This document shows, piece after piece, positions 47,593 through 59,860 of a DNA stretch of 64,000 nt. How positions within the stretch are numbered: position 1 is the first letter of the stretch; each line of letters opens with the position of its first letter. Below the pieces are notes generated by a model. That model saw only the letters and a program-made list of their open reading frames with translations. It did no database searches and had not been told where the DNA came from. Source of the DNA: Geodermatophilus sabuli (GTDB taxonomy: Bacteria; Actinomycetota; Actinomycetes; Mycobacteriales; Geodermatophilaceae); contig NZ_OBDO01000014.1 in NCBI RefSeq assembly GCF_900215145.1, positions 1-64,000 of the forward strand, in the 5' to 3' direction. The position numbers were made by a program, and so were the translations under genes.

Positions 47593-48423
47593 TCAGGCGC
47601 TCGCGGTGCCGCCGTCGGTCGCCCGGTGGAGGTCGAGGTGCGGGCGGGACTGCCAGACCGCCCACTCCGCGCTGACGTCCCCCGCGGTGCGCAGCAGCTT
47701 GGGCAGGTGCTCGCCGAGCAGGTGCTCGGTGGAGGTCTCCGCCGCGTGCACGGTCACGTTCATGGCCGCCCGGACCGCGCCCGACGCGTCACGGACCGGG
47801 ACGGCGACCGAGCGGACCCCGGGTGCGAGCTCCTCGTCGGCCAGCGCCCAGCCCCGGGCCCGGACGCCGACCAGCTCGTCGCGCAGCTGCTCGGGGCTGC
47901 GGCCGATGTAGGCGGGCAGCCCGGCGCGGCTGGGCTGGGCCAGCGTCACCTCGAGCTCGTCGGGGGAGAGGGCGGCCAGCAGCACCTTCCCCTGCGACGT
48001 CTGCACCGCCGGGAACCGCGTGCCGATCTCCACGCGCAGGGTGATGAGCTTGGGCACCGACACCCGGGCGACGTAGACGACGTCGGAGCCGTCCAGCTGC
48101 GTCATGGACGACGACTCGCCGGTCTGCGCGACCAGGGCCTCCAGGTGCGGCCGGGCGATCTCCCACAGCCCGAGCGCCCCCACGTAGGCCATGCCGAGGG
48201 TGAGCACCTTCGGCGTGAGCTGGAAGGCGTGGCCGACCGACCGGACGAAGCCGAGCTCCTCCAGCGTGAGCAGCAGCCGGCGCGCCGTCGGCCGGGCCAG
48301 CCGCGCGGCCGCGGCGACCTCCGACAGCGTCATGCTCCGGTGGTCGGCGTCGAAGCAGGCCAGCACGTCCAGCCCGCGTGCCAGCGCCTCGACGAAGTCC
48401 GGTCCGGTCCCGCGTCCCGCCAT
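47593..48423 (-). CDS. IclR-family regulator
   Basis: A 276-residue IclR regulator. The N-terminal winged helix is at residues 8-70 (LARPTARRLLLTLEELGFV) and the effector domain at about 80-255 (SSMTQLDGSDVVYVARV and FPAVQTSQGKVLLAAL), closest to the PcaR/PobR/CatR aromatic group. It is the only regulator gene seen in the 47-64 kb catabolic region and the best candidate for binding the CGGAC/GTCCG palindromes there. A 16-bp hairpin separates it from the amidohydrolase gene upstream. Confidence 0.9.
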   Translation of the reverse strand: MAGRGTGPDFVEALARGLDVLACFDADHRSMTLSEVAAAARLARPTARRLLLTLEELGFVRSVGHAFQLTPKVLTLGMAYVGALGLWEIARPHLEALVAQTGESSSMTQLDGSDVVYVARVSVPKLITLRVEIGTRFPAVQTSQGKVLLAALSPDELEVTLAQPSRAGLPAYIGRSPEQLRDELVGVRARGWALADEELAPGVRSVAVPVRDASGAVRAAMNVTVHAAETSTEHLLGEHLPKLLRTAGDVSAEWAVWQSRPHLDLHRATDGGTASA

Positions 48424-48493: not shown

Positions 48494-49981
48494 TCAGCGT
48501 CCGAGGACGCGGTCCTCGCCGCCGGCCCGCTTGGACTCGTCCTTGAAGTCGCTGTACTGGTACGGGTTGTCGAGGATGTCCGCCTCGGCCTCCGGCTTGT
48601 CGGGGAACATCCCGGCCTGCCACGCCTCCTCGCCGATCTCCGCGCGCAGGAAGTCGATGGTGTTCTCGATCTCGCGGCGCACCGGGGCCAGGTCGATCCC
48701 GACCAGCTTGCCGGCGTACTTCACCACGCGGCCGTCGACCACGACGGTGTGCACGTCGGAGCGCTGCGCCTGGAACACGACGTGCCCGAGCGGGTTGAGC
48801 AGCGGGAAGGACACCGGGGAGTCGTCGTTCTTGACGAGGACGAGGTCGGCCTTCTTGCCCGGCTCGAGGCTGCCGAGGTCGGAGTCGCGGCCGATCGTGT
48901 GCGCGCCGCCCCGGGTGGTCCACTCGACGACCTGCTGCGCGCGCAGGCGCAGGTGGGTGATCGTCTCCCCCTTGAGGTGCGCGGTCAGGTGCTCGGACAT
49001 GCGGTCGGCGTTGAGCGTCGCCCGCATGGCGGAGAACATGTCGCCGCTCCACCACACGCTGGTGTCCATCGACAGCGACACCGGGATGCCGTACTGCAGC
49101 ACCTGCTCGGTGGGGGCGTGCCCCTGCCCGGCGCTGCACTCCGACTCCGTCGCCACCGAGATCGACCCGCCGGTCGCGGCGATCCGCTGGTAGGAGTCCC
49201 GGGTCAGCGTGGACGCGTGGACGTAGGTGGTCTCCGGCGTCATGAACCCGTTGTCGTACATCTGCTGGATGCCGGTGTCGCTCGTGGCACCCCAGACACC
49301 GGCGTGCGTGGTCACCGGGAGGCCGAGGTCCCGGGCCACCTCGAAGGCCGCCTTCTCCGGGAACGCCGGGTCGCCGGTGACGTCGAAGGCGATCTGCACG
49401 CCCATCATGTCGTCGCGGGCGTCGCGCAGCCGCTCGAGGAACGACCGGACGGCGGGGTCGGCGGTCCACTCCCAGGGGCCGGCCTGGATGTTGCCGTAGG
49501 CGAGGACGAACCGGCCGGGCACCGACCGCAGGGCGTCGAGGGCGGCCTCGGCGTGGTCGACGGAGTGCAGGTTGTGCGACCAGTCGACGGTGGTGGTGAC
49601 GCCGGCGTCCAGGGACTCGATGGCGGCCAGCCGGTTGCCGGCCGCGATGTCCTCGGGTCGGAACTTCTTGCCGTGCTCGAGGTAGTACCAGACGAAGTAC
49701 TGGGTCAGCGTCCAGTCCGCGCCGTAGCCGCGCATCGCCGTCTGCCACATGTGCCGGTGCGTGTCGATCATCCCGGGCATGACGACGCCGCCGGACGCGT
49801 CGATCTCCTGGGTGCCCTCGGGCACCTCCAGGCGCGGGCCCACGGCGGCGATCCGGTCGTCGACGACCAGGACGTCGGCGTCGGCGAGCACCGTGCAGGC
49901 GTCGTCCATGGTGAGCACGGTGCCGCCACGCAGCACCACGGGGCGTCCGGCCACCGGGACCGGGCCGTCGGAACTGGTCAT
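48494..49981 (-). CDS. amidohydrolase, TRZ/ATZ (cytosine deaminase-like) family
   Basis: A 495-residue metal-dependent amidohydrolase. The first metal ligands are in MPGMIDTHRHMWQTA, another His in VTTHAGVWG, one in TYVHAS, and the Asp in SLSMDTS; the C-terminal GSLEPGKKADLVLV is typical of the TRZ/ATZ deaminase/chlorohydrolase group. It would deaminate or hydrolyse an aromatic or heterocyclic substrate. The ATG has a strong GAGGAGGAG site. It is divergent from the CoA-transferase operon and shares a two-operator intergenic region with it. Confidence 0.87.
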   Translation of the reverse strand: MTSSDGPVPVAGRPVVLRGGTVLTMDDACTVLADADVLVVDDRIAAVGPRLEVPEGTQEIDASGGVVMPGMIDTHRHMWQTAMRGYGADWTLTQYFVWYYLEHGKKFRPEDIAAGNRLAAIESLDAGVTTTVDWSHNLHSVDHAEAALDALRSVPGRFVLAYGNIQAGPWEWTADPAVRSFLERLRDARDDMMGVQIAFDVTGDPAFPEKAAFEVARDLGLPVTTHAGVWGATSDTGIQQMYDNGFMTPETTYVHASTLTRDSYQRIAATGGSISVATESECSAGQGHAPTEQVLQYGIPVSLSMDTSVWWSGDMFSAMRATLNADRMSEHLTAHLKGETITHLRLRAQQVVEWTTRGGAHTIGRDSDLGSLEPGKKADLVLVKNDDSPVSFPLLNPLGHVVFQAQRSDVHTVVVDGRVVKYAGKLVGIDLAPVRREIENTIDFLRAEIGEEAWQAGMFPDKPEAEADILDNPYQYSDFKDESKRAGGEDRVLGR

Positions 49982-50223: not shown

Positions 50224-51438
50224 ATGACCGCACACGCGCTCCCACCGGGCGCGACGCCGGGTGGCGGGCCGCTCTCGGGCCTGCTGGTCGCCGACTTCTC
50301 CCGGGTGCTCGCCGGGCCCTACGCCACCATGCTCCTCGCCGATCTCGGCGCCGAGGTGGTCAAGGTGGAGAGCCCCGCCGGTGACGACACCCGCAGCTGG
50401 GCCCCGCCGGTCCGCGACGGCGTCTCCACCTACTACCTGGGCGTCAACCGCAACAAACGCTCGATCGCGCTGGACCTCAAGGACCCCGACGACGCCGCCG
50501 CCGCCCGCGAGCTGGCCCGCCGGGCCGACGTGGTCATCGAGAACTTCAAGCCCGGCGGGCTGGCCCGCTTCGGTCTGGACTACGAGACCGTCGCCGAGGG
50601 CAACCCCGGCGTCGTCTACGCCTCGATCAGCGGCTTCGGCAGCGGCCCGCAGGGCCGGTCGCTGCCCGGCTACGACCTCATCGTGCAGGCCATCTCCGGC
50701 CTCATGAGCCTCACCGGCGACCCCGAGGGCGAGCCCTTCCGCGCCGGCATCTCCGTCTTCGACGTGATGGCGGGGCTGCACGCGACCATCGGCGTGCTCA
50801 GTGCGCTCAACGCCCGGCACGCGAGCGGGCGGGGCCAGCACGTCGAGGTCAACCTGCTGGCGTCGGCGCTGTCGGGCCTGGTCAACCACTCCAGCGCGTA
50901 CGTCGCCGGCGGCGTCGTGCCGTTCCGCATGGGCAACAGCCACCCCAGCCTGTTCCCCTACGAGCCGCTGCCGTGCTCCGACGGCGACCTGATCATCACC
51001 GCCGGCAACAGCGGCCAGTTCCGCAAGCTGGTCGGGGTGCTGGGCGTGCCCGAGCTGGCCGACGACCCCCGCTTCCTGCGCAACGAGGACCGCACCGCCA
51101 ACCGCGACCAGCTGCGGCCGCTGCTGGTGGAGCGGCTGCGCACCCGGACCAAGCAGGAGTGGTTCCGCGACATCATCGCCGCCGGCGTGCCGTGCGGGCC
51201 GATCAACACCGTCGACCAGGGCGTGGCCTTCGCCGAGGAGGTCGGGCTCGACCCGGTCGTGACCGTTGGGGAGGGCGCGGCCGCCGTCCCGTCGGTGCGC
51301 AACCCGATCACCTTCTCCGACACCCCCGCCGACTACCGACTGCCCCCGCCGGGCCTCGACGAGCACGGCGCGGAGATCCGCGCCTGGCTGTCCGCACCGG
51401 TGGCCGGGAGCCCCGACGAGGTGGAGGGCACGGCGTGA
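50224..51438 (+). CDS. CaiB/BaiF CoA-transferase
   Basis: A 404-residue type-III CoA-transferase. The nucleophilic Asp lies in SLPGYDLIVQAISGLMSLTG near residue 156, as in formyl-CoA transferases and unlike the racemase at 42.5 kb. GLLVADFSRVLAGPYATMLL opens the fold and ELARRADVVIENFKPGGLAR follows. It should move CoA from a donor thioester onto a carboxylate. Its stop overlaps the next start (GTGA), coupling it to the citryl-CoA-lyase-like gene, so the CoA ester it makes is probably the lyase substrate. Confidence 0.9.
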   Translation: MTAHALPPGATPGGGPLSGLLVADFSRVLAGPYATMLLADLGAEVVKVESPAGDDTRSWAPPVRDGVSTYYLGVNRNKRSIALDLKDPDDAAAARELARRADVVIENFKPGGLARFGLDYETVAEGNPGVVYASISGFGSGPQGRSLPGYDLIVQAISGLMSLTGDPEGEPFRAGISVFDVMAGLHATIGVLSALNARHASGRGQHVEVNLLASALSGLVNHSSAYVAGGVVPFRMGNSHPSLFPYEPLPCSDGDLIITAGNSGQFRKLVGVLGVPELADDPRFLRNEDRTANRDQLRPLLVERLRTRTKQEWFRDIIAAGVPCGPINTVDQGVAFAEEVGLDPVVTVGEGAAAVPSVRNPITFSDTPADYRLPPPGLDEHGAEIRAWLSAPVAGSPDEVEGTA

Positions 51439-52274
51439 GCGACGACGGCCGGCCCCGGTACGACACCGCGCTCGGCGCCTCCAGCCTGGAGAGCATCACG
51501 CTGCTGGGCTCCGACCTCGCCCGCGACGTGATGGGCGAGGTCGGCTTCGGGGAGCTGGCCTTCTGGCTGGCCACCCAGCGGCGTCCGTCGAGGGGCGAGA
51601 CCCGGGTCTTCGAGGCGGTGCTGGCGGCGCTGGCCGACCACGGCTTCACGCCGACCGCGATCGTCACCCGGCTGACCTACCTCTCCGCCCCGGACTCCGT
51701 GCAGGGGGCGCTCGCGGCCGGCCTGCTCGGCGGCGGCTCCCGGTTCCTGGGGGTCACCGAGGACTGCGGCCGCTTCCTGCACGACGTCCTCACGGGCGTG
51801 GACGGCGACCTGCCCAGCGACGACGCCGGATGGGACGCCCTCGCGCTGGAGACCGTGCAGGCCCAGCGGGCGGCCCGACGCTTCGTGCCGGGGCTGGGCC
51901 ACCACGTGCACAAGCAGGGCGACCCGCGCACCCCGCGGCTGTTCGAGATCGCGGCGGAGGAGGGGCTGTACGGCCCCCACCTGTCGCTGTTCGCGGCGAT
52001 CGGCCGGGTGCACCCCCAGGTGCTGGGGAAGACGCTGCCGCTCAACGGCGCCGGCGTGTGCGGGGCGGCGCTGGCCGACCTCGGGCTGCCGCTGGAGCTG
52101 CTGCGCGGGTTCGCCCTGCTGGCGCGCACCGCGGGTCTCATCGGTCAGCTGGCCGAGGAACTGCGGCACCCTGTCGGCAACGAGATCTTCCTGTCGGTGG
52201 ACCTCAACAACCGGTCCGTCGCACCCGACCCGTACACCCCAGACATCGACGCCAACGGAGGTCGGCATGGCTGA
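51435..52274 (+). CDS. citryl-CoA lyase-like (citrate synthase fold)
   Basis: A 279-residue protein of the small citrate-synthase/citryl-CoA-lyase fold. The catalytic-His block is RFVPGLGHHVHKQGDPRTPR, comparable to GFGHRVY...DPR of citrate synthase. Where citrate synthase has a catalytic Asp in an NVD segment, this protein reads LPLNGAGVCGAALADLG, so the base is apparently replaced. It probably splits or forms a citrate-like CoA thioester by a Claisen-type reaction. Placed between a CoA-transferase and a LigB-type dioxygenase, it may act in the lower part of a ring-cleavage pathway. Confidence 0.8.
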   Translation: MSDDGRPRYDTALGASSLESITLLGSDLARDVMGEVGFGELAFWLATQRRPSRGETRVFEAVLAALADHGFTPTAIVTRLTYLSAPDSVQGALAAGLLGGGSRFLGVTEDCGRFLHDVLTGVDGDLPSDDAGWDALALETVQAQRAARRFVPGLGHHVHKQGDPRTPRLFEIAAEEGLYGPHLSLFAAIGRVHPQVLGKTLPLNGAGVCGAALADLGLPLELLRGFALLARTAGLIGQLAEELRHPVGNEIFLSVDLNNRSVAPDPYTPDIDANGGRHG

Positions 52275-53130
52275 AGTCGCCGCGGTCATCGCGTCCACGC
52301 ACCACCCCTTCTACTACCGGGCGAGCACGTCGACCGGCGCGGACCGGCCGCCGTTCGCTGACGAGTGGGTCGCCAAGATCGAGCGCTTCCGGGAGACGCT
52401 CACCCGGGCCGAGCCCGACGTGCTGGTGATGGTCGGCAGTGACCACTTCCACCAGCTGTGGCTGGACAACATGCCCCAGTTCCTCGTCGGCAAGGCGCCC
52501 TTCTTCGACGCCAACTGGTACAACGAGGAGCGCGAGTTCGGGCTCCCGCGGATGACGCTGAAGGGCGAGGAGGAACTCGCCGCGCACATCCTCCGCGACG
52601 GCCTGGACCGCGACTTCGACCTGGCGTTCAGCAACGAGCTGCGGATCGACCACAGCATCACGTGCCCGATCATCACGCTGCGGCCGCAGGCGGACCTGCC
52701 GATCGTGCCGATCTACACCAACATCTTCGCCCCGCCGCTGCCGCAACCGAAGCGGTTCGTGCAGCTGGGCCGGGCGATCCGCGAGATGGTCGAGTCCTGG
52801 GAGAGCGGCAAGCGGGTCGCGATAATCGGCACCGGTCACCTGTCGCTGGAGCTCGGCGGCCCCCGCCAGTTCGGCGAGCACGGCCCCGACCCCGAGTTCG
52901 ACCGCAAGGCCGTCGAGTGGATCGCCAGCGGTGACATCGAGGGCTGCCTGGCCGAGGTGAGCCTGGACAGCCTGCACAGCCCGGGGAACGCCACCCACGG
53001 CTTCATGGACTTCATGCTGATGATGGGCGTCGCCGGCGAGGGCCGGAAGGCCGACCACGTCGACACCCTCGACCTGTTCCACACGATGGAGGCCTACTTC
53101 ACCTGGTACCCCAACGGGGCACCGGCCTGA
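52267..53130 (+). CDS. LigB-superfamily extradiol dioxygenase, catalytic subunit
   Basis: A class-III extradiol dioxygenase of 287 residues, catalytic (beta) partner of the following LigA-like protein. Likely iron ligands are His12 (IASTHHPFYY) and His60 or 62 (VGSDHFHQLW); His191 in GTGHLSLELGG corresponds to the acid/base His of LigB. The third ligand, a Glu in a GNxxHE-type segment of LigB-type enzymes, appears as GNATHGFMDF here, with Gly in that place by eye. It overlaps the preceding gene by eight bases. The substrate is probably a protocatechuate- or gallate-like diol. Confidence 0.85.
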   Translation: MAEVAAVIASTHHPFYYRASTSTGADRPPFADEWVAKIERFRETLTRAEPDVLVMVGSDHFHQLWLDNMPQFLVGKAPFFDANWYNEEREFGLPRMTLKGEEELAAHILRDGLDRDFDLAFSNELRIDHSITCPIITLRPQADLPIVPIYTNIFAPPLPQPKRFVQLGRAIREMVESWESGKRVAIIGTGHLSLELGGPRQFGEHGPDPEFDRKAVEWIASGDIEGCLAEVSLDSLHSPGNATHGFMDFMLMMGVAGEGRKADHVDTLDLFHTMEAYFTWYPNGAPA

Positions 53131-53161
53131 GGCCGCGGACGGCGAGAACGGAGACCCACGC

Positions 53162-53521
53162 GTGAGCAAGTACCTGCTCGACAAGTTCCTCTACACCGTG
53201 GACCGCGACCCGGAGCTGGTCGAGCGCTACCGGGAGGACCCGGCCGGCACGGTGGAGTGGTGGGAGGCCGAGATGGCCAACAGGATCCTCAACGTCATCG
53301 ACGCCGAGAAGACGACGTGGCTGTCGTTCACCGAGGACGAGCGGAAGGCGCTGCGGGAGCACGACCACGTCACCCTCTTCCAGATGGGTGCGCACCCCTT
53401 CCTCACCCTGACGCTGTTCATCGCGATGTTCGAGCGCGACCACGGCCCGCTGGAGTACCAGAAGGCCTACGGCAAGGCGATGGAACACATCTCCATGCCG
53501 TACCCGGACATCTCCACCTGA
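53162..53521 (+). CDS. LigA-like small subunit of the extradiol dioxygenase
   Basis: A 119-residue all-helical protein matching the LigA (protocatechuate 4,5-dioxygenase alpha subunit) family: YLLDKFLYTVDRDPELVERY, EERKALREHDHVTLFQMGAH-type core (here DERKALREHDHVTLFQMG) and a C-terminal helix pair. LigA caps the LigB active site and helps select the substrate. The GTG start follows GGAGA, 31 bases after the catalytic subunit. Confidence 0.87.
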   Translation: MSKYLLDKFLYTVDRDPELVERYREDPAGTVEWWEAEMANRILNVIDAEKTTWLSFTEDERKALREHDHVTLFQMGAHPFLTLTLFIAMFERDHGPLEYQKAYGKAMEHISMPYPDIST

Positions 53522-53533
53522 GGGAGCACCGCC

Positions 53534-54517
53534 GTGCGGGCCGCCGTCCTGACCACCCTCGGCGCGCCGCCCCGGCTCGGCACCCACCCGGCGCCCGAGC
53601 CCGCCGCGGGTCGCACCCTCGTGCGGGTGACCGCGGCGCCGGTCGTGCCGCTGGACCTGCTCTGCGCCTCGGGCACCTCCTACTTCGGCCGTCCGGCGAC
53701 GCCGTACGTGCCCGGGGTGCAGGGCGTGGGCGTCGTCGAGCAGTCGGGGGCGCACCCGCCCGGCAGCCGCGTCTGGTTCGCCACGTCGGCCGGGATGGCG
53801 CCCGGTGACGGCAGCCTCGGCGAGTTGTGCGCGGTGCCGGATGCCGACGTCGTCCCGGTGACTGCCGACGTGCCCGACGTGCTCGCCGCGGCCCTCGGGC
53901 TCTCCGCCGTCGCCGCGTGGATGGCGCTGACCTGGCGCGGGCGGTTCCGGGCCGGGGAGCGGGTCGTCGTGCTCGGCGCTGGCGGCGCGGTCGGCCAGGT
54001 CGCCGTCGGTGCGGCGAAGCTGCTCGGCGCCGCCCGGGTGGTCGGCGTGTGTCGGCCGGGGGAGTCGGCGGAGCGGGCCCGCCGCGCCGGCGCCGACGAG
54101 GTGGTGCCGACGTCGGCCGACGCCGACGACCTCGCCGCCCGGCTGGGCGCGGCCACCGACGGCGCGGCCGACGTCGTCGTCGACCCGGTGTTCGGGACGG
54201 CGGCGACGGCGGCCGCCCGCGTGCTCGCCCCGTTCGGCCGGCTGGTCAACATCGGCGGGGCCTCCGGTGACGAGGCGCGGTTCTCCTCCGCGGTGCTGCG
54301 CAGCCGCAGCGCCGAGGTGCTCGGCTACACCAACAACGCGCTGACCCCGGAACAGCGGGCCGCGGCGCTGACCGACGTCCTCGGGCACGCCGAGCGAGGG
54401 GCGCTGTCCCTCGACCACCTCGTCCTGCCCCTGGCCGAGGTGGAGCGTGGCTGGGCGCTGACCGCCGAGGGCGGCTGCGGGCGCGTCGTCCTGGTCCCCG
54501 GTACGCCGGCGGACTGA
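53534..54517 (+). CDS. quinone oxidoreductase-like MDR protein
   Basis: A 327-residue medium-chain dehydrogenase/reductase without zinc-binding cysteines, so of the quinone-oxidoreductase type. The NADPH-binding motif is VVVLGAGGAVGQVAVGAAKLLG near residue 140, and the N-terminal GroES-like half reads VPGVQGVGVVEQSG. It would reduce an enone or quinone with NADPH. It begins 12 bases after the LigA gene and is the last gene of the CoA-transferase operon. Confidence 0.85.
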   Translation: MRAAVLTTLGAPPRLGTHPAPEPAAGRTLVRVTAAPVVPLDLLCASGTSYFGRPATPYVPGVQGVGVVEQSGAHPPGSRVWFATSAGMAPGDGSLGELCAVPDADVVPVTADVPDVLAAALGLSAVAAWMALTWRGRFRAGERVVVLGAGGAVGQVAVGAAKLLGAARVVGVCRPGESAERARRAGADEVVPTSADADDLAARLGAATDGAADVVVDPVFGTAATAAARVLAPFGRLVNIGGASGDEARFSSAVLRSRSAEVLGYTNNALTPEQRAAALTDVLGHAERGALSLDHLVLPLAEVERGWALTAEGGCGRVVLVPGTPAD

Positions 54518-54659: not shown

Positions 54660-55865
54660 ATGACCACGACCGCCCCGACCTCGGCCCCCACCTACGACGG
54701 GGACATCTTCACGGACGAGGCGCTGCTCGAGCCGTACGAGGACTACCGGGCCCTGCGCGAGCTCGGGCCCGCGGTGTGGCTGTCGCAGCACGCCGCGTAC
54801 GCCGTGGCACGGTACGACGAGGCCAAGGCCGTCCTCATGGACGGCGACACCTTCCGCTCGGCCAACGGCATCGCGCTCAACGAGCCGGCCAACCAGGCGA
54901 TCCTCGGCTGCACGCTCGCCAGTGACGGCGAGCTGCACGCGCACCTGCGCCAGGTGGTAGCCCACCGGCTGACCCCGCGCGCGCTGCGCCCGATGAAGGA
55001 CACCGTCACCGAGAAGGCTGAGGAGCTCGTCGCCACCCTGGTGGAGAAGGGCTCCTTCGACGCGGTCGCCGACCTCGCCCGGGCGCTGCCGCTGTCGATC
55101 GTCCCCGACTTCATCGGCTGGCCGCAGGAGGGCCGCGAGCACCTGCTGCGCTGGGCCGGCGCCAACTTCGACTCCTTCGGGCCGATGAACGCCCGCACCG
55201 AGCGGGCGCTGCCGCAGTGCGGCGAGATGGCCGCCTACGGCGCCGAGATCGTCCGCACCCGCAACGTGTCGCCCGGCAGCCTCGGCGCCGGCGTGCTGCA
55301 GGCCGTCGACAGCGGGGACATCTCCACCGAGCAGGCGATGATGCTCATGCTCGACTACCTCGCCCCGTCGCTGGACACCACGATCAGCGCGGTGGGCAGC
55401 GCGGTCTGGCTGTTCGCCCAGAACCCCGACCAGTGGGACCTCATCCGCAACGACCCCGGCCTGATCCCCAACGCCGTCAACGAGGTCGTCCGGATCGAGT
55501 CGCCGATCCGCTCCTTCGGCCGGCTCACCAGCAAGGACACCCGGATCGGGGACGTGGAGGTCCCCGAGGGCTCCCGCGTGCTGGTCATCTACGCCTCGGC
55601 CAACCGGGACGAGCGCAGGTTCGACCGGCCCGACGAGTTCGACGTCACCCGCGCCAACGCCGTCCACCAGCTCGGGTTCGGCATGGGCGAGCACGGCTGC
55701 GCCGGCGCGGGCCTGGCCCGCATGGAGACCGAGTCCCTGCTGCGCGCCCTGGCGCCGCGGGTCGCCCGCTTCCACCTGCAGGGCACCGAGCGCGCGCTGA
55801 ACAACCTCATCCGCGCCTTCGGCCGGGTCGACGTCACCGTCGACCGCACCGCAGCGGAGGCCTGA
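54660..55865 (+). CDS. cytochrome P450, CYP199-like aromatic-acid demethylase
   Basis: A soluble class-I P450 of 401 residues. The haem-binding loop is FGMGEHGCAGAGLARME with the thiolate ligand Cys347; the ExxR motif is VNEVVRIESPIRSF and the I-helix reads YLAPSLDTTISAVG, close to the SAGLDTT of CYP199A enzymes that O-demethylate methoxybenzoates. It may produce the hydroxy-aromatic acid used by the LigAB pathway. No ferredoxin or reductase gene is adjacent, so it must borrow redox partners. The ATG follows GGAAGGACC. Confidence 0.87.
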   Translation: MTTTAPTSAPTYDGDIFTDEALLEPYEDYRALRELGPAVWLSQHAAYAVARYDEAKAVLMDGDTFRSANGIALNEPANQAILGCTLASDGELHAHLRQVVAHRLTPRALRPMKDTVTEKAEELVATLVEKGSFDAVADLARALPLSIVPDFIGWPQEGREHLLRWAGANFDSFGPMNARTERALPQCGEMAAYGAEIVRTRNVSPGSLGAGVLQAVDSGDISTEQAMMLMLDYLAPSLDTTISAVGSAVWLFAQNPDQWDLIRNDPGLIPNAVNEVVRIESPIRSFGRLTSKDTRIGDVEVPEGSRVLVIYASANRDERRFDRPDEFDVTRANAVHQLGFGMGEHGCAGAGLARMETESLLRALAPRVARFHLQGTERALNNLIRAFGRVDVTVDRTAAEA

Positions 55866-55876
55866 GGCCCCGCACC

Positions 55877-55903
55877 GAGCCCCCTGCCGCCGGCAGGGGG
55901 CTC
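55877..55903. terminator. bidirectional terminator between P450 and glycerate kinase
   Basis: Perfect 12-base arms (GAGCCCCCTGCC at 55877-55888 and its complement at 55892-55903) around a GCC loop, directly between the two convergent genes. Confidence 0.8.
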
Positions 55904-57044
55904 AGTGCCGTGCGCGCAGGTCCTCGCCGATGCGCCGGCCCACGGTCTCCAGCAGGGCGGCGGCCTCGGTCATGCAACGCTCCGGGTCCGGCTCGAGGTC
56001 GGTGAGTGGGTGGGTGGCGCCCAGCCCGGCGGCCCGCGCCTCCTCCGGGCTGATCAGGCTCCGCCCCACCGCCGCCACCACCGGCGTCCCGACCTCGTGG
56101 GCCAGCGCGGCCAGCCCGATCGGCCCCTTGCCGCGCAGGCTCTGGGCGTCCAGGGAGCCCTCGCCGACCACCACCAGCGCCGCGCCGCGCACGGTGTCGG
56201 CGAACCCGGTGAGGTCCAGCAGCAGTCGCACGCCGGGGGTGAGCCGGGCACCCAGCACGCTGGACAGGCCGAAGGCGATGCCGCCCGCGGCGCCGGCGCC
56301 GGGCTCCCCGCGCCGGTCGGCCCCGGTCGCGGCGGCGACGACGTCCGCCCAGCGAGCGAGAGCGGCGTCGAGGGTGGCCACGGCGTCGGGGGTGGCGCCC
56401 TTCTGGGGGCCGTAGACCGCCGCGGCGCCCTCGGGTCCGGTCAGCGGGTTGTCGACGTCGCAGGCGACCACCAGTTCGGTCCCGGCCAGCCGCGGGTCCA
56501 ACCCGGACAGGTCGAGCCGGTCCGCGGTGGCCAGGACGGCGCCGCCGGGTGGGACCTCGGCGCCGTCCGCGGTCAACACCCGGGCCCCCAGGCCGACCAG
56601 CGCTCCGGCGCCGCCGTCGGTCGTGGCGCTGCCGCCGACGCCGAGCACGACCCGCCGCGCCCCGGCGTCGAGCGCGTCCGCGACCAGCCGGCCCACGCCG
56701 AGGGTGGTGGCGTGCAGGGCGGTCCGCTCGGTGGGTCCGGGCGGCGGAAGCAGTCCCAGGCCGGCGGCCGCCGACATCTCGGCCACCGCGGTGTCCCCAC
56801 GCACGGCGTAGCGGGCCGCCACAGGCTGCCCGAGCGGGCCGGGCACCTCGCAGGTGCGCGGCGTGAAGCCGTGCGCGAGCACCAGGTCCACGGTGCCCTC
56901 GCCGCCGTCGGCGATCGGTGTCTGGACCAGCTCGGCGTCGGGCAGGGCGCGCCGCAGGCCCCGGGCCAGTGCGGCGGCCACCTCCGCTGCGCTCAGCGAG
57001 CCCTTGAACTTGTCGGGGGCGAGCACGATCCGCGGCCCGGTCAT
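55902..57044 (-). CDS. glxK: glycerate kinase
   Basis: A 380-residue glycerate kinase of the GlxK/GarK family (2-phosphoglycerate-forming in characterised members). The start IVLAPDKFKGSLSAAEVAAA, TPIADGGEGTVD, LGVGGSATTDGGAGAL and VVVGEGSLDAQSLRGKGP are diagnostic. It feeds glycerate into glycolysis. It lies 17 bases downstream of the LarA homologue in the same direction, so the two probably share a transcript. Confidence 0.93.
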   Translation of the reverse strand: MTGPRIVLAPDKFKGSLSAAEVAAALARGLRRALPDAELVQTPIADGGEGTVDLVLAHGFTPRTCEVPGPLGQPVAARYAVRGDTAVAEMSAAAGLGLLPPPGPTERTALHATTLGVGRLVADALDAGARRVVLGVGGSATTDGGAGALVGLGARVLTADGAEVPPGGAVLATADRLDLSGLDPRLAGTELVVACDVDNPLTGPEGAAAVYGPQKGATPDAVATLDAALARWADVVAAATGADRRGEPGAGAAGGIAFGLSSVLGARLTPGVRLLLDLTGFADTVRGAALVVVGEGSLDAQSLRGKGPIGLAALAHEVGTPVVAAVGRSLISPEEARAAGLGATHPLTDLEPDPERCMTEAAALLETVGRRIGEDLRARH

Positions 57045-57061
57045 CTCCGGTGTCTACCCGG

Positions 57062-58351
57062 TCAGCCGGCCAGGTAGGGGATCGTCTGCGGCCCCTCGGG
57101 GAGGTAACAGACCCGGGCGCCGGGCCCGTGCCGGCCGACGGCGTCGTCGATCGCCCCGGCCAGGTCGGTCGCCGGCACCAGGTGCGCGGCCCGCACCTCC
57201 TCGGGCGGCAGCCCGGAGCAGTACAGCTGGACCTCGGCCGTGGCGAGGATGCGGGCCAGCACCTGCACCTGCCACTGGTCGGGGACGCTGAACCCCGGGG
57301 AGTTGATGAGGTCCAGGAGGCCGGCCGGGTCCGGTGCCGCCGCGAGCACCTCGGCGAAGGAGCCGTGCGCGGGCAGCCCGTCGGCGCACTCGGCCGCCAC
57401 GACCACCGTCCCGCCGGGGCGCACGACCCGCTCGGCGGCGGCCATGCCCTTCACCGCCTGGTAGAGGTTCTGGTCCAGCGGGAAGCCGGAGTTCGTCGTC
57501 ACGACGACGTCCATCGGGTGCGGGACGGCGCGCATCGCGGCCGCGCGGGCGAGCTCGCAGGCGCGGACGTGCATGGTGAACAGCTCACCGCACACCACGT
57601 GGGTGATCCGCTTCGCCCGGTCCAGCAGCACGTCGAGGGCGAGGTCGGGCGGAGCGGCCGCGGCGCAAGCCCGGATGTCCCGGTGCACCGGGTTGTCCTC
57701 GACCACGCCCCAGGTCGCCTTCGGGCTGCCGATGCGGGCGGCGTCGTGCAGCACCATCACGGTGTCCAGGCCCGCCAGGCCGGGCGCGACCATCTTCGGG
57801 CCGCCGCTGAAGCCGGCGAAGAAGTGCGGCTCGACGAAGCCGGTGGTGATCCGCAGGTCGGCGGCCAGCCACCGCGAGTTGAGCTCCAGGGGCACGCCGT
57901 CGCCGACCGTGCCCAGCGAGGTGAGCGAGGAGCGGTCGCGGGCATCGTGGTTGACGAGCTCGCACCGGCTCATCACCTCTTCGCCGAGCATGGCGCGCAG
58001 CTCCTCGGGGGTGTTGCCGCGGTGCGTGCCGGTGGCCACCAGGACGACGACCTCGCAGCCACGCACGGCGCCGTCGATCTCCTCCAGCAGGGCGGTCAGC
58101 ATCTGCTCGCGCGGCTGGGCCCGGGTGCCGTCGCACACCGAGACGGCGATCGTCATGCCGTCGCGGACCATCGCCGCCAGCGGCGGAGTCCCGAGGGGAG
58201 CGCGGAGGGCCGCCCGCAGCGCGGCGGCGGGGTCGGGGAGCGCCGGGTCGTCGTGCGGCGTGACCACGAGGGCGCCGTCGTGGAGGGGGACGTCGACGGT
58301 GCCCCGGCCGTAGGCGAGGGACACGACCGGAGCCGCCGGTCCGACCGTCAT
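57062..58351 (-). CDS. LarA-family nickel-pincer racemase homologue
   Basis: A 429-residue member of the lactate-racemase LarA superfamily, whose enzymes racemise 2-hydroxy acids with a nickel-pincer nucleotide. The catalytic His regions are VLVATGTHRGNTPEE near residue 105 and GFVEPHFFAGFSGGPKMVAPG-type sequence near residue 170 (His and Lys of the cofactor pocket). Paired with glycerate kinase, it could interconvert glycerate or another 2-hydroxy acid; that is inference. The cofactor genes larB, larC and larE are not in the window. The start could also be a GTG six codons upstream. Confidence 0.87.
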   Translation of the reverse strand: MTVGPAAPVVSLAYGRGTVDVPLHDGALVVTPHDDPALPDPAAALRAALRAPLGTPPLAAMVRDGMTIAVSVCDGTRAQPREQMLTALLEEIDGAVRGCEVVVLVATGTHRGNTPEELRAMLGEEVMSRCELVNHDARDRSSLTSLGTVGDGVPLELNSRWLAADLRITTGFVEPHFFAGFSGGPKMVAPGLAGLDTVMVLHDAARIGSPKATWGVVEDNPVHRDIRACAAAAPPDLALDVLLDRAKRITHVVCGELFTMHVRACELARAAAMRAVPHPMDVVVTTNSGFPLDQNLYQAVKGMAAAERVVRPGGTVVVAAECADGLPAHGSFAEVLAAAPDPAGLLDLINSPGFSVPDQWQVQVLARILATAEVQLYCSGLPPEEVRAAHLVPATDLAGAIDDAVGRHGPGARVCYLPEGPQTIPYLAG

Positions 58352-58474
58352 CGCTGCACCGTCTCCCACCCCGCGTCCGTGTGCCGACCGGTCGTACGGT
58401 GCTGTCGGCCGCGAGGCGTGTCAAGTTCGCGGACCGGGGTCCCGATCCGGCCCCCGGTCCGCGACATGTGTCTC

Positions 58475-58666: not shown

Positions 58667-59860
58667 ATGACGACGACCGCACCCGACCAGGCCCTCGCCT
58701 CCTCGGGCGGCGTGGAGCCGGCCGACCTGGTCGCTGCCGCCCGAGCGCTGCAGCCACTGGTCCGGGAGAGCGCGGCCGCCAACGAGGCAGCCGGGCGGCT
58801 CGTCGACGCGGTCGACGACGCCCTGCACGAGGCCCGCCTGTACGGCATGTGGACCCCCCGCGAGCTGGGCGGCGCCGAGTGCGACCCGCTCTCCTCGCTG
58901 GAGATCGTCCAGACGCTGGCAGCGGCCGACCCGTCGACGGCGTGGGTGCACATGGCCGCCTCGCTGGCCATCGGCACCGGCGGGGCCTACCTGCAGGACG
59001 CGGCCGTCAAGGAGATGTTCTCCGGCGAGCGCCTGCCCGTCGTGGCCGGCCAGGGCACCCGCCCGGGCACCGCGAAGACCGACGGTGACGGCTTCCGGCT
59101 CAGCGGCGACTGGAGCTTCGCCTCCGGCATCAAGCACTCGCAGTGGATCCACACGCTCGGCATCATCGAGGAGACCGGCGAGCCGCGGATCTTCGTCCTC
59201 CCGGTCGAGAAGGCCGAGCTGATCGAGACCTGGGACGTCATGGGTCTCAAGGCCACCGGCAGCATCGACTACAAGATCCGCGACGTCTTCGTGCCCGAGA
59301 CCTTCACGCACCTCGGCCCGGTCGAGGAGGGCCGCCGCGGCGGCTGGATCTTCAAGCTCGGCATCATGCACTTCGCCCTCATCGGCCACTCGGGGTGGGC
59401 GCTGGGCGTCGCGCGCCGGATGCTCGACGACCTCTCCGAGCAGGTGCGGGGCAAGGCCGGCCGGGCCGGGTCCATGGCCGAGAGCACCCGGTTCCACGCC
59501 ATCTACGGCGAGCTCGAGGCGAGGTACCACGCCGCCCGTGCGTTCGTGTACGAGGTGTGGCGGGAGGCGACCGCGACGCTGGAGAACGGCGGCGAGCTCG
59601 ACTCCGACCAGCGCACCCGGCTGCGGCTGGCGCTCTACAACGCGACCTGGACCGCGGAGGCCATCAGCGTCGAGGTCTACAAGGCGGCGGGCACCTCGGC
59701 GCTGCGCACCGGCGCGATGCAGCAGTACTTCCGCGACATGCACGCCGGCACCCAGCACGTCACGTCGGCTCCGCACGTGCTCGAGGGCTGCGGCAAGTTC
59801 CTCGCCGGGCTGGCCCCGGACCACACCTGGCTCTACATGAACCTCGTGCCCAAGGGCTGA
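58667..59860 (+). CDS. HsaA-like flavin-dependent monooxygenase, oxygenase component
   Basis: A 397-residue protein of the acyl-CoA-dehydrogenase fold but of the group-D flavin monooxygenase type (HsaA, HpaH/C2 relatives): LYGMWTPRELGGAECDP, ADPSTAWVHMAASLA, DGFRLSGDWSFASGIKHSQW and MGLKATGSIDYKIRDVFVP, and no acyl-CoA dehydrogenase catalytic Glu motif. It would hydroxylate a phenol ring with reduced flavin supplied by a separate reductase, which is not encoded nearby. The ATG follows ACAGGAG. It has its own operator-bearing promoter. Confidence 0.87.
   Translation: MTTTAPDQALASSGGVEPADLVAAARALQPLVRESAAANEAAGRLVDAVDDALHEARLYGMWTPRELGGAECDPLSSLEIVQTLAAADPSTAWVHMAASLAIGTGGAYLQDAAVKEMFSGERLPVVAGQGTRPGTAKTDGDGFRLSGDWSFASGIKHSQWIHTLGIIEETGEPRIFVLPVEKAELIETWDVMGLKATGSIDYKIRDVFVPETFTHLGPVEEGRRGGWIFKLGIMHFALIGHSGWALGVARRMLDDLSEQVRGKAGRAGSMAESTRFHAIYGELEARYHAARAFVYEVWREATATLENGGELDSDQRTRLRLALYNATWTAEAISVEVYKAAGTSALRTGAMQQYFRDMHAGTQHVTSAPHVLEGCGKFLAGLAPDHTWLYMNLVPKG

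What the first reader, a model, noticed from the sequence alone, without database searches (positions are those of the whole stretch)
50224..54517. LigAB dioxygenase operon with CoA-transferase and citryl-CoA-lyase-like gene: possible CoA-dependent ring-fission pathway
Known 4,5-cleavage routes of protocatechuate or gallate end with hydratase and aldolase acting on a citrate-like acid. None of those genes is visible here. Instead a type-III CoA-transferase and a citrate-synthase-fold lyase are translationally coupled to LigB/LigA. The cell may activate the citrate-like fission product as a CoA thioester and split it by a retro-Claisen step. This is the strongest candidate for an undescribed system in the window.
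Basis: inference. Interest (0 to 1): 0.8.

Follow-up and report, generated by a model that had tools for sequence, protein, structure and literature searches.

The report
Swappable ring-opening module in soil bacteria
A compact set of genes found in many soil bacteria appears to open an aromatic ring and finish the fragment through coenzyme A, using a ring-opening enzyme with an unusual active site that an unrelated enzyme replaces in sister species.

Summary
They belong to a seven-gene module: IclR regulator | amidohydrolase (AHY), divergent from CaiB CoA-transferase, citrate-synthase-fold "citryl-CoA lyase" (Ccl), LigB-like, LigA-like, MDR reductase. In 80 named loci picked by LigB, CaiB and Ccl flank it in 78, IclR in 72, AHY in 71, MDR in 62. 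In 397 genomes drawn from the order, Ccl occurs in 108: 64 with LigB, 39 with a hydroxyquinol-type intradiol dioxygenase beside Ccl, 1 counted in both, 6 with neither. The ring-cleaving enzyme has been swapped repeatedly between unrelated folds, so both probably give the same product. Catalytic signatures are missing: LigB lacks Glu242 (Gly) and His195 (Leu), and Ccl lacks citrate synthase's Asp (Ala or Ser). The names "protocatechuate dioxygenase" and "citryl-CoA lyase" are unsafe. Most likely a self-contained route opens a polyhydroxylated benzene and finishes it through a CoA thioester to acetyl-CoA plus a C4/C5 acid. The substrate is unproven: hydroxyquinol-type or gallate-type. Most novel reading: a LigAB-fold enzyme that cleaves intradiol. 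None of ten paper searches listed a title or abstract start describing the module.

The parts
47593..48423 (-). IclR-family regulator of the PcaR/PcaU/PobR type
   Evidence: TIGR02431 257.5 bits, below cut-off 284.75; 72 of 80 loci
48494..49981 (-). AHY: amidohydrolase-superfamily (PF01979, PRK08204) protein; proposed hydrolase or hydratase of the ring-fission product
   Evidence: PRK08204 395.7 bits, cut-off 391; H75, H77, H226, H255, D306 in 102 of 102 aligned (metal role recalled); 71 of 80 loci
50224..51438 (+). CaiB: type III CoA-transferase
   Evidence: PF02515 389 bits; Asp (catalytic by recall) in 114 of 114 aligned; 78 of 80 loci
51435..52274 (+). Ccl: citrate-synthase-fold protein annotated citryl-CoA lyase; catalytic Asp replaced by Ala
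   Evidence: PRK06224.1-5 267 bits, cut-off 193; Asp column A 107, S 6 of 113, both His kept 113 of 113
52267..53130 (+). LigB-like subunit; Gly at Glu242, Leu at His195
   Evidence: PF02900; residue columns in 103 close relatives; model nearest DesB and LigAB
53162..53521 (+). LigA-like small subunit
   Evidence: PF07746 in 7 of 7 members, best 1.2e-4; 80 of 80 loci
53534..54517 (+). MDR-type oxidoreductase
   Evidence: PF00107; best NCBIfam PIG3 quinone oxidoreductase, 89.5 bits, below cut-off 296.8; 62 of 80 loci
54660..55865 (+). Accessory cytochrome P450 resembling CYP199A4 (4-methoxybenzoate O-demethylase by recall)
   Evidence: 273 bits to a CYP199A4 chain, other P450 chains of similar score; its 40% cluster lies near the module in L037, L056 and the window, of 125 loci

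Best explanation
This is a self-contained catabolic module for a polyhydroxylated benzene. Step 1: the LigB/LigA-like pair opens the ring between two hydroxylated carbons, giving the same dicarboxylic product as the hydroxyquinol-type intradiol dioxygenase that takes its place in sister species. Step 2: AHY hydrolyses or hydrates the product (enol-lactone, pyrone or muconate form). Step 3: MDR, where present, reduces an activated C=C. Step 4: CaiB moves CoA from a donor such as succinyl-CoA to the acid. Step 5: the citrate-synthase-fold protein, which lacks the usual Asp, splits the thioester to acetyl-CoA and a C4 or C5 acid. Shown here: gene content, conservation, the swap, the residue changes. 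Inferred: that the LigB-like enzyme is a ring-opening dioxygenase, and every chemical step. Two concrete fillings fit: (i) hydroxyquinol-type: maleylacetate, 3-oxoadipate, 3-oxoadipyl-CoA, acetyl-CoA + succinate; (ii) gallate-type: 4-oxalomesaconate, 4-oxalocitramalate, its CoA ester, acetyl-CoA + a C5 dioxo acid.
For: 397 genomes of the order, apparently the same draw each time: Ccl in 108, the intradiol type in 41, LigB in 66. Overlap: Ccl with LigB 64, with intradiol 39, with both 1, with neither 6; a dioxygenase without Ccl 4; within 5 kb of Ccl 61 of 64 (LigB) and 39 of 39 (intradiol). Eight changes between the two on a CaiB tree of 105 rows, 5-6 forced by starred branches. The intradiol proteins keep Tyr, Tyr, His, His in 19 of 19 and score best against hydroxyquinol 1,2-dioxygenases. 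The same kinds of accessory gene accompany both versions: MetE-like, a diverged 4-hydroxybenzoate-hydroxylase-like protein in L104 and L072 (LigB) and L195 (intradiol), a gamma-resorcylate-decarboxylase-like protein in L053 (LigB) and its 43% relative in L194 (intradiol). LeuC + LeuD + CaiB + Ccl stand together in Cupriavidus.
Against: No activity data. Ccl lacks Asp, so lyase chemistry is uncertain. LigB lacks Glu242 and His195, so oxygenase activity is not assured. MDR is missing from 18 and AHY from 9 of 80 loci, some cut by contig ends; AHY was also not found in L028, L145 and L146. CaiB and Ccl of the proteobacterial plasmids are only 34-41% identical to the window's. Rhizobial plasmids L030 and L034 carry LigB+LigA with no CaiB or Ccl in the stretch read. 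Rhodococcus BX2 (L032) has CaiB+Ccl with neither dioxygenase. Species share history, so the Fisher P (1.2e-21) is not a true probability.
Confidence: 0.6

Rival explanations
1. Vicinal triol (gallate or pyrogallol type) with ordinary extradiol regiochemistry. On such a triol the extradiol bond also lies between two C-OH carbons, so an intradiol enzyme gives the same product and no exotic LigB chemistry is needed. Product: 4-oxalomesaconate or 2-hydroxymuconate, then hydration and CoA-dependent cleavage.
For: LigM vanillate/3-O-methylgallate O-demethylase directly after LigB-LigA in L146 (709.6 bits, cut-off 580); 4-hydroxybenzoate-hydroxylase-like genes, below family cut-offs; CYP199A4-like P450 in the window; LeuD in two Rhodococcus modules; best structural matches are DesB-gallate and LigAB.
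Against: DesB keeps the His and Glu that are lost here. RraA-like (CHA-aldolase family) genes exist elsewhere in this genome (5 places), so oxalomesaconate might not need CoA. The swapped-in enzymes are hydroxyquinol-type.
Confidence: 0.3
2. The LigAB-like enzyme is not a ring-cleaving oxygenase; the amidohydrolase opens the ring, as KpiC does in 4-hydroxypyridine catabolism, and LigB does another metal-dependent step.
For: KpiC, a PF01979 amidohydrolase, converts 3,4-dihydroxypyridine to a product 32 Da heavier (PMC7356986; passages and two sections read). LigB lacks Glu242 and His195.
Against: AHY stands with both versions, whereas it is LigB+LigA that an intradiol dioxygenase replaces, so the dioxygenase slot is LigB's.
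Confidence: 0.07
3. LigB/LigA and the intradiol enzyme act on different substrates, and the module is a common lower pathway fed by either.
For: Both occur together in G747 (L191; L038 is the same locus) and in L051; L146 has a more distant (46%) intradiol relative. Distant LigB relatives stand beside FAA-hydrolase genes instead.
Against: Near-complete exclusion (1 of 102 genomes with a dioxygenase has both) and the same kinds of accessory gene with both versions argue for one substrate.
Confidence: 0.15

Closest known systems
Protocatechuate 4,5-dioxygenase LigAB / gallate dioxygenase DesB (class III extradiol)
   Same: Two-subunit LigB+LigA make-up as in LigAB; His12, His61 and His127 equivalents kept; model nearest 3wku and 1bou
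   Different: Glu242 is Gly and His195 is Leu in the close family; a His three residues before the His195 position; neighbours point to a CoA-based lower route
Hydroxyquinol 1,2-dioxygenase pathway (intradiol, then maleylacetate reductase and 3-oxoadipate CoA-transferase/thiolase; pathway recalled)
   Same: The intradiol version of the module carries an enzyme nearest this clade; gamma-resorcylate-decarboxylase-like and FAD-hydroxylase-like genes stand beside it in L194
   Different: The recurrent neighbours are CaiB, Ccl, AHY and MDR; I did not search for maleylacetate reductase, PcaIJ or PcaF as families
Citryl-CoA lyase (6hxp, named) and ATP-citrate lyase C-terminal domain
   Same: Citrate-synthase family by sequence; both catalytic His kept
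   Different: Catalytic Asp replaced by Ala or Ser in 113 of 113 loci, by Thr or Ala in 7 of 7 plasmid relatives
Itaconate/citramalate CoA routes (CoA-transferase, hydratase, citramalyl-CoA lyase; recalled)
   Same: Cupriavidus pBB2 places Ccl with CaiB, LeuC and LeuD, the logic of hydration, CoA transfer and cleavage
   Different: No ring-cleaving enzyme is annotated there; the known citramalyl-CoA lyases are CitE-fold (recalled)

Membership tests
LigAB-type class III extradiol dioxygenase | LigB fold plus LigA-type subunit | tested here: met
   PF02900 over cut-off; PF07746 in 7 of 7 members, window protein itself below cut-off; Foldseek 1bou_B 1.7e-10
LigAB-type class III extradiol dioxygenase | 2-His-1-Glu metal site (His12, His61, Glu242; numbering from PMC11926856) | tested here: not met
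   His12 column His in 102 of 103 (1 gap), His61 in 103 of 103; Glu242 column Gly in 102 of 103 (1 gap)
LigAB-type class III extradiol dioxygenase | Second-sphere His195 | tested here: not met
   Leu in 103 of 103; Asn in 4 of 4 distant relatives
LigAB-type class III extradiol dioxygenase | O2-dependent extradiol cleavage | not testable with these tools
   needs enzyme assay
Citryl-CoA lyase (citrate-synthase superfamily) | Curated family score | tested here: met
   PRK06224.1-5 subfamily 267 bits, cut-off 193
Citryl-CoA lyase (citrate-synthase superfamily) | His, His, Asp catalytic residues (roles recalled) | tested here: not met
   Both His kept 113 of 113; Asp replaced by A 107, S 6
Type III CoA-transferase | PF02515 and catalytic Asp (role recalled) | tested here: met
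   389 bits; Asp 114 of 114
Hydroxyquinol pathway | Hydroxyquinol as substrate | not testable with these tools
   indirect only: clade of the swapped-in intradiol enzyme
Gallate / protocatechuate 4,5-cleavage pathway | ligI/J/K-type genes with the dioxygenase | tested here: not met
   Own genome: none of 11 PF04909 places and none of 5 RraA-like places lies on the window's contig C16

The most novel reading that the evidence does not exclude
The LigB/LigA-like enzyme is a natural intradiol-cleaving dioxygenase built on the extradiol LigAB fold. It has lost the acid-base His195 and the Glu metal ligand, and it does the job of a hydroxyquinol 1,2-dioxygenase. Replacing the equivalent His in homoprotocatechuate 2,3-dioxygenase (H200F) was reported to turn extradiol into intradiol cleavage (recalled; and the papers opened did not confirm it). 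The lower route would be a new set (MDR, CaiB, Asp-less citrate-synthase fold) standing in for maleylacetate reductase, 3-oxoadipate CoA-transferase and thiolase.
Probability: 0.25. Interest if true: 0.9.

Novelty: new variant of a known kind. Interest (0 to 1): 0.7.

Why it matters
The module is common in this order (Ccl in 108 of 397 genomes; LigB in 66 of 397), sparse across the phylum (LigB in 10 of 396 at E 1e-60), and occurs on rhizobial and Rhodococcus plasmids. Its enzymes carry names that their residues do not bear out. Repeated exchange of a LigAB-fold enzyme and an intradiol dioxygenase in one operon is a natural experiment on what sets the cleavage site of aromatic dioxygenases. 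If the LigAB-fold enzyme cleaves intradiol, fold no longer predicts cleavage position. If the lower route is CoA-based, it adds a way of finishing ring-fission products and affects how breakdown of lignin- or flavonoid-derived aromatics is predicted from genomes.

Tried and rejected
Protocatechuate as the obvious substrate: the genome has two adjacent PcaGH-like PF00775 genes on C10 and a canonical LigB near an RraA-like aldolase gene on C18, so a third route is less likely, though not excluded.

Pyridine ring opening (PydA/KpiC precedent): set aside. KpiC's nearest characterised relative in the paper is an enamidase (PMC7356986), AHY is of the PRK08204 type, and the accessory genes look phenolic. 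KpiC's sequence was not compared with AHY.

Riboflavin/lumichrome catabolism (PMC12746152, abstract and passages): catechol dioxygenase plus retro-aldol, no mention of CoA; rejected.

3-His metal site as in DOPA dioxygenase (PMC11926856, passages): the family has His244 one residue before the Glu242 position, but the 4 distant relatives do not keep it, so it was not adopted.

The AlphaFold2 model is only moderate (mean pLDDT 69.5, pTM 0.77; residues 60-83, 125-134 and 192-203 under 50); it supports the fold, not the active site.

The gene caller was home-made. At first it failed on lower-GC loci (L138, L124-L126) and was retrained. A motif count for CaiB (78 of 114) was a poor pattern and was replaced by an alignment (114 of 114). 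The Ccl count wrongly included a Limimaricola plasmid protein among the loci; one search recounts it.

The 20 loci L180-L199 were picked by hand from Ccl hits; 16 of them lack LigB, and 15 of those 16 have the intradiol gene. The residue counts draw on 125 such loci less those without a full-length gene; L038 and L191 are one genome and are counted twice there. Only the 397-genome survey is free of that choice.
Full report
WHAT IS THERE. The window is bases 1-64000 of contig C16 (100 kb) of a 5.5-Mb genome. The nearest named LigB relatives are in Geodermatophilus. Genes at the finding: CaiB-type CoA-transferase 50224-51438, citrate-synthase-fold protein (Ccl) 51435-52274, LigB-like 52267-53130, LigA-like 53162-53521 and an MDR oxidoreductase 53534-54517. 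On the other strand, back to back with CaiB, lie an amidohydrolase (AHY, 48494-49981) and an IclR regulator (47593-48423). The LigA call is weak for the window protein alone (PF07746, E 0.012) but is made by 7 of 7 family members.

A CONSERVED MODULE. Among these 80, LigB and LigA are found in 80, CaiB and Ccl in 78, IclR in 72, AHY in 71 and MDR in 62; 70 have the first six and 54 all seven. In L060 and L062 the LigB match begins 50-85 bases from the end of the DNA held. Genera include Geodermatophilus, Modestobacter, Blastococcus, Kribbella, Nocardioides, Streptomyces, Dactylosporangium, Nonomuraea, Micromonospora and Actinomycetospora. Beyond the module, the recurrent neighbours are mostly shared within a genus; the clear exception is a MetE-like gene. 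So it looks self-contained. In an even draw of the phylum, LigB was found in 10 of 396 genomes at E 1e-60. Plasmids of Aminobacter, Sinorhizobium and Martelella carry LigB+LigA with CaiB and Ccl. Their LigB is 64-65% identical to the window's, but their CaiB and Ccl are only 34-41%. Two rhizobial plasmids (L030, L034) carry LigB+LigA without CaiB or Ccl in the stretch read. In one Neorhizobium plasmid the LigB match is in two pieces. Rhodococcus BX2 (L032) has CaiB+Ccl with neither dioxygenase, beside a FAD hydroxylase-like and a glyoxalase-fold protein.

THE RING-CLEAVAGE SLOT IS SWAPPED. In Rhodococcus opacus plasmid pRho-G13 (L127) the same operon (IclR, FAD hydroxylase, alpha/beta hydrolase, AHY-type amidohydrolase, CaiB, Ccl, LeuD) has an intradiol dioxygenase in the place where Rhodococcus sp. 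NBC_00297 (L027) has LigB+LigA. Its best solved relatives are PnpC (254 bits) and hydroxyquinol 1,2-dioxygenase (241 bits), against 109 bits for the best catechol 1,2-dioxygenase. Three searches over 397 genomes of the order (same number, same quality and genus totals each time) gave Ccl in 108, this intradiol type in 41 and LigB in 66. Overlap: Ccl with LigB 64, with intradiol 39, both 1, neither 6; four genomes have a dioxygenase and no Ccl at the threshold. LigB lies within 5 kb of Ccl in 61 of 64 (in the other three it is on another contig) and the intradiol gene in 39 of 39. On a quick tree of 105 CaiB proteins (86 LigB, 16 intradiol, 3 both, of which L038 and L191 are one genome) the two versions change 8 times, 5-6 forced by starred branches. 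The tree is a quick one with some long rows, and species share history, so the P value (1.2e-21) overstates the independence.

WHAT THE SWAP IMPLIES. Two unrelated dioxygenases in one slot should make the same product. Intradiol cleavage leaves two acids. An extradiol enzyme does so only if the cleaved bond lies between two hydroxylated carbons, as in gallate or pyrogallol (established chemistry, recalled). So either the substrate has three neighbouring hydroxyls, or the LigAB-like enzyme itself cleaves intradiol.

ODD ACTIVE SITES. In LigB the ligands are His12, His61 and Glu242, with His127 and His195 near the substrate (PMC11926856, passages). In 103 close relatives from these loci, the window included, the His12 column is His in 102 (1 gap), His61 in 103 and His127 in 103. 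The Glu242 column is Gly in 102 (1 gap) and the His195 column is Leu in 103. A His stands three residues before His195 in 103 of 103. Four distant relatives have Asn at His195 and Gly, Gly, Gly, Gln at Glu242. The own genome's canonical LigB (C18) keeps all of them. The Ccl proteins of 113 loci keep both catalytic His in 113, but the Asp column is Ala 107, Ser 6; seven further plasmid proteins annotated citryl-CoA lyase have Thr (5) or Ala (2); citryl-CoA lyase 6hxp and ATP-citrate lyase have Asp (which corrects). AHY keeps HxH, His, His, Asp in 102 of 102. CaiB keeps its Asp in 114 of 114, and the intradiol proteins keep Tyr, Tyr, His, His in 19 of 19.

HINTS ON SUBSTRATE. Similar accessory genes go with either dioxygenase. 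A methionine-synthase-like protein (PF01717; a demethylase role is a guess) lies in 12 loci by tblastn, 11 distinct genomes since L038 and L191 are one: with LigB in L028, L050, L058, L072, L074, L084 and L104, with intradiol in L195, L197 and L198, with both in L038/L191. A 4-hydroxybenzoate-hydroxylase-like protein, below the family cut-offs, stands in L104 and L072 (LigB) and L195 (intradiol). A gamma-resorcylate-decarboxylase-like protein stands in L053 (LigB; 272 bits to 3s4t) and a 43% relative in L194 (intradiol). LigM, a vanillate/3-O-methylgallate O-demethylase, follows LigB-LigA in L146. The P450 next to the module in the window resembles CYP199A4. These point to methoxylated or hydroxylated benzoates as the source. 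They do not separate hydroxyquinol from gallate as the compound that is cleaved.

MECHANISM PROPOSED. Ring opening by LigB/LigA; hydrolysis or hydration by AHY; reduction by MDR where present; CoA transfer by CaiB; cleavage by Ccl to acetyl-CoA and a C4 or C5 acid. With hydroxyquinol: maleylacetate, 3-oxoadipate, 3-oxoadipyl-CoA, acetyl-CoA + succinate. With gallate: oxalomesaconate, oxalocitramalate, its CoA ester, acetyl-CoA + dioxoglutarate. These schemes are inference from atom counts, not results. The order of AHY and MDR is a guess. The Asp-less Ccl may do other chemistry, for example a hydrolytic retro-Claisen on a 3-oxoacyl-CoA.

NOVELTY. Ten searches of the paper library listed no title or abstract start describing this module. 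The library lacks most subscription journals, so this is weak evidence of absence. Papers opened: PMC7356986 (passages and two sections), and PMC12746152, PMC13118837, PMC5291488, PMC4879150 and PMC11926856 (passages only). The H200F extradiol-to-intradiol conversion is recalled; the passages read did not confirm it.

Noticed in passing
G000:C18:41212-41997 and C18:37876-38316: A canonical LigB with the metal and acid-base residues lies 3 kb from an RraA-like (CHA-aldolase family) gene, suggesting an ordinary 4,5-cleavage route elsewhere in the genome.
   Followed up: partly
G000:C3:143333-158614: A LigB-family hit, three RraA-like genes in a row and two PF04909 amidohydrolases lie within 16 kb; possibly another 4,5-cleavage cluster.
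   Followed up: no
window 55902-58369: A glycerate kinase (PF02595) and a lactate-racemase-like protein (Lar_N, LarA_C) stand side by side on the minus strand next to the module.
   Followed up: partly
window 58667-59860: An acyl-CoA-dehydrogenase-fold protein (PF08028), possibly a flavin-dependent hydroxylase, that occurs with the CYP199A4-like P450 in L037 and L056.
   Followed up: partly
L147:9119-11347, L148:6725-10064, L122:9001-9879: Distant LigB relatives (36-39% identity) lacking the same Glu and His; FAA-hydrolase genes (PF01557) lie near them in L147 and L148, and one is annotated about 7.5 kb away in L122: a wider clade of LigB proteins without the canonical site.
   Followed up: partly
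L115-L121: Seven other 'citryl-CoA lyase' genes on plasmids stand in varied contexts (CoA-transferases, MaoC, acyl-CoA dehydrogenases, CoA ester lyases, TRAP or tricarboxylate transporters) and 7 of 7 lack the catalytic Asp, so the family name may be wrong widely.
   Followed up: partly
L038 and L191: One genome reached by two tools carries LigB+LigA and the intradiol gene in the same module, a possible snapshot of a swap in progress.
   Followed up: partly
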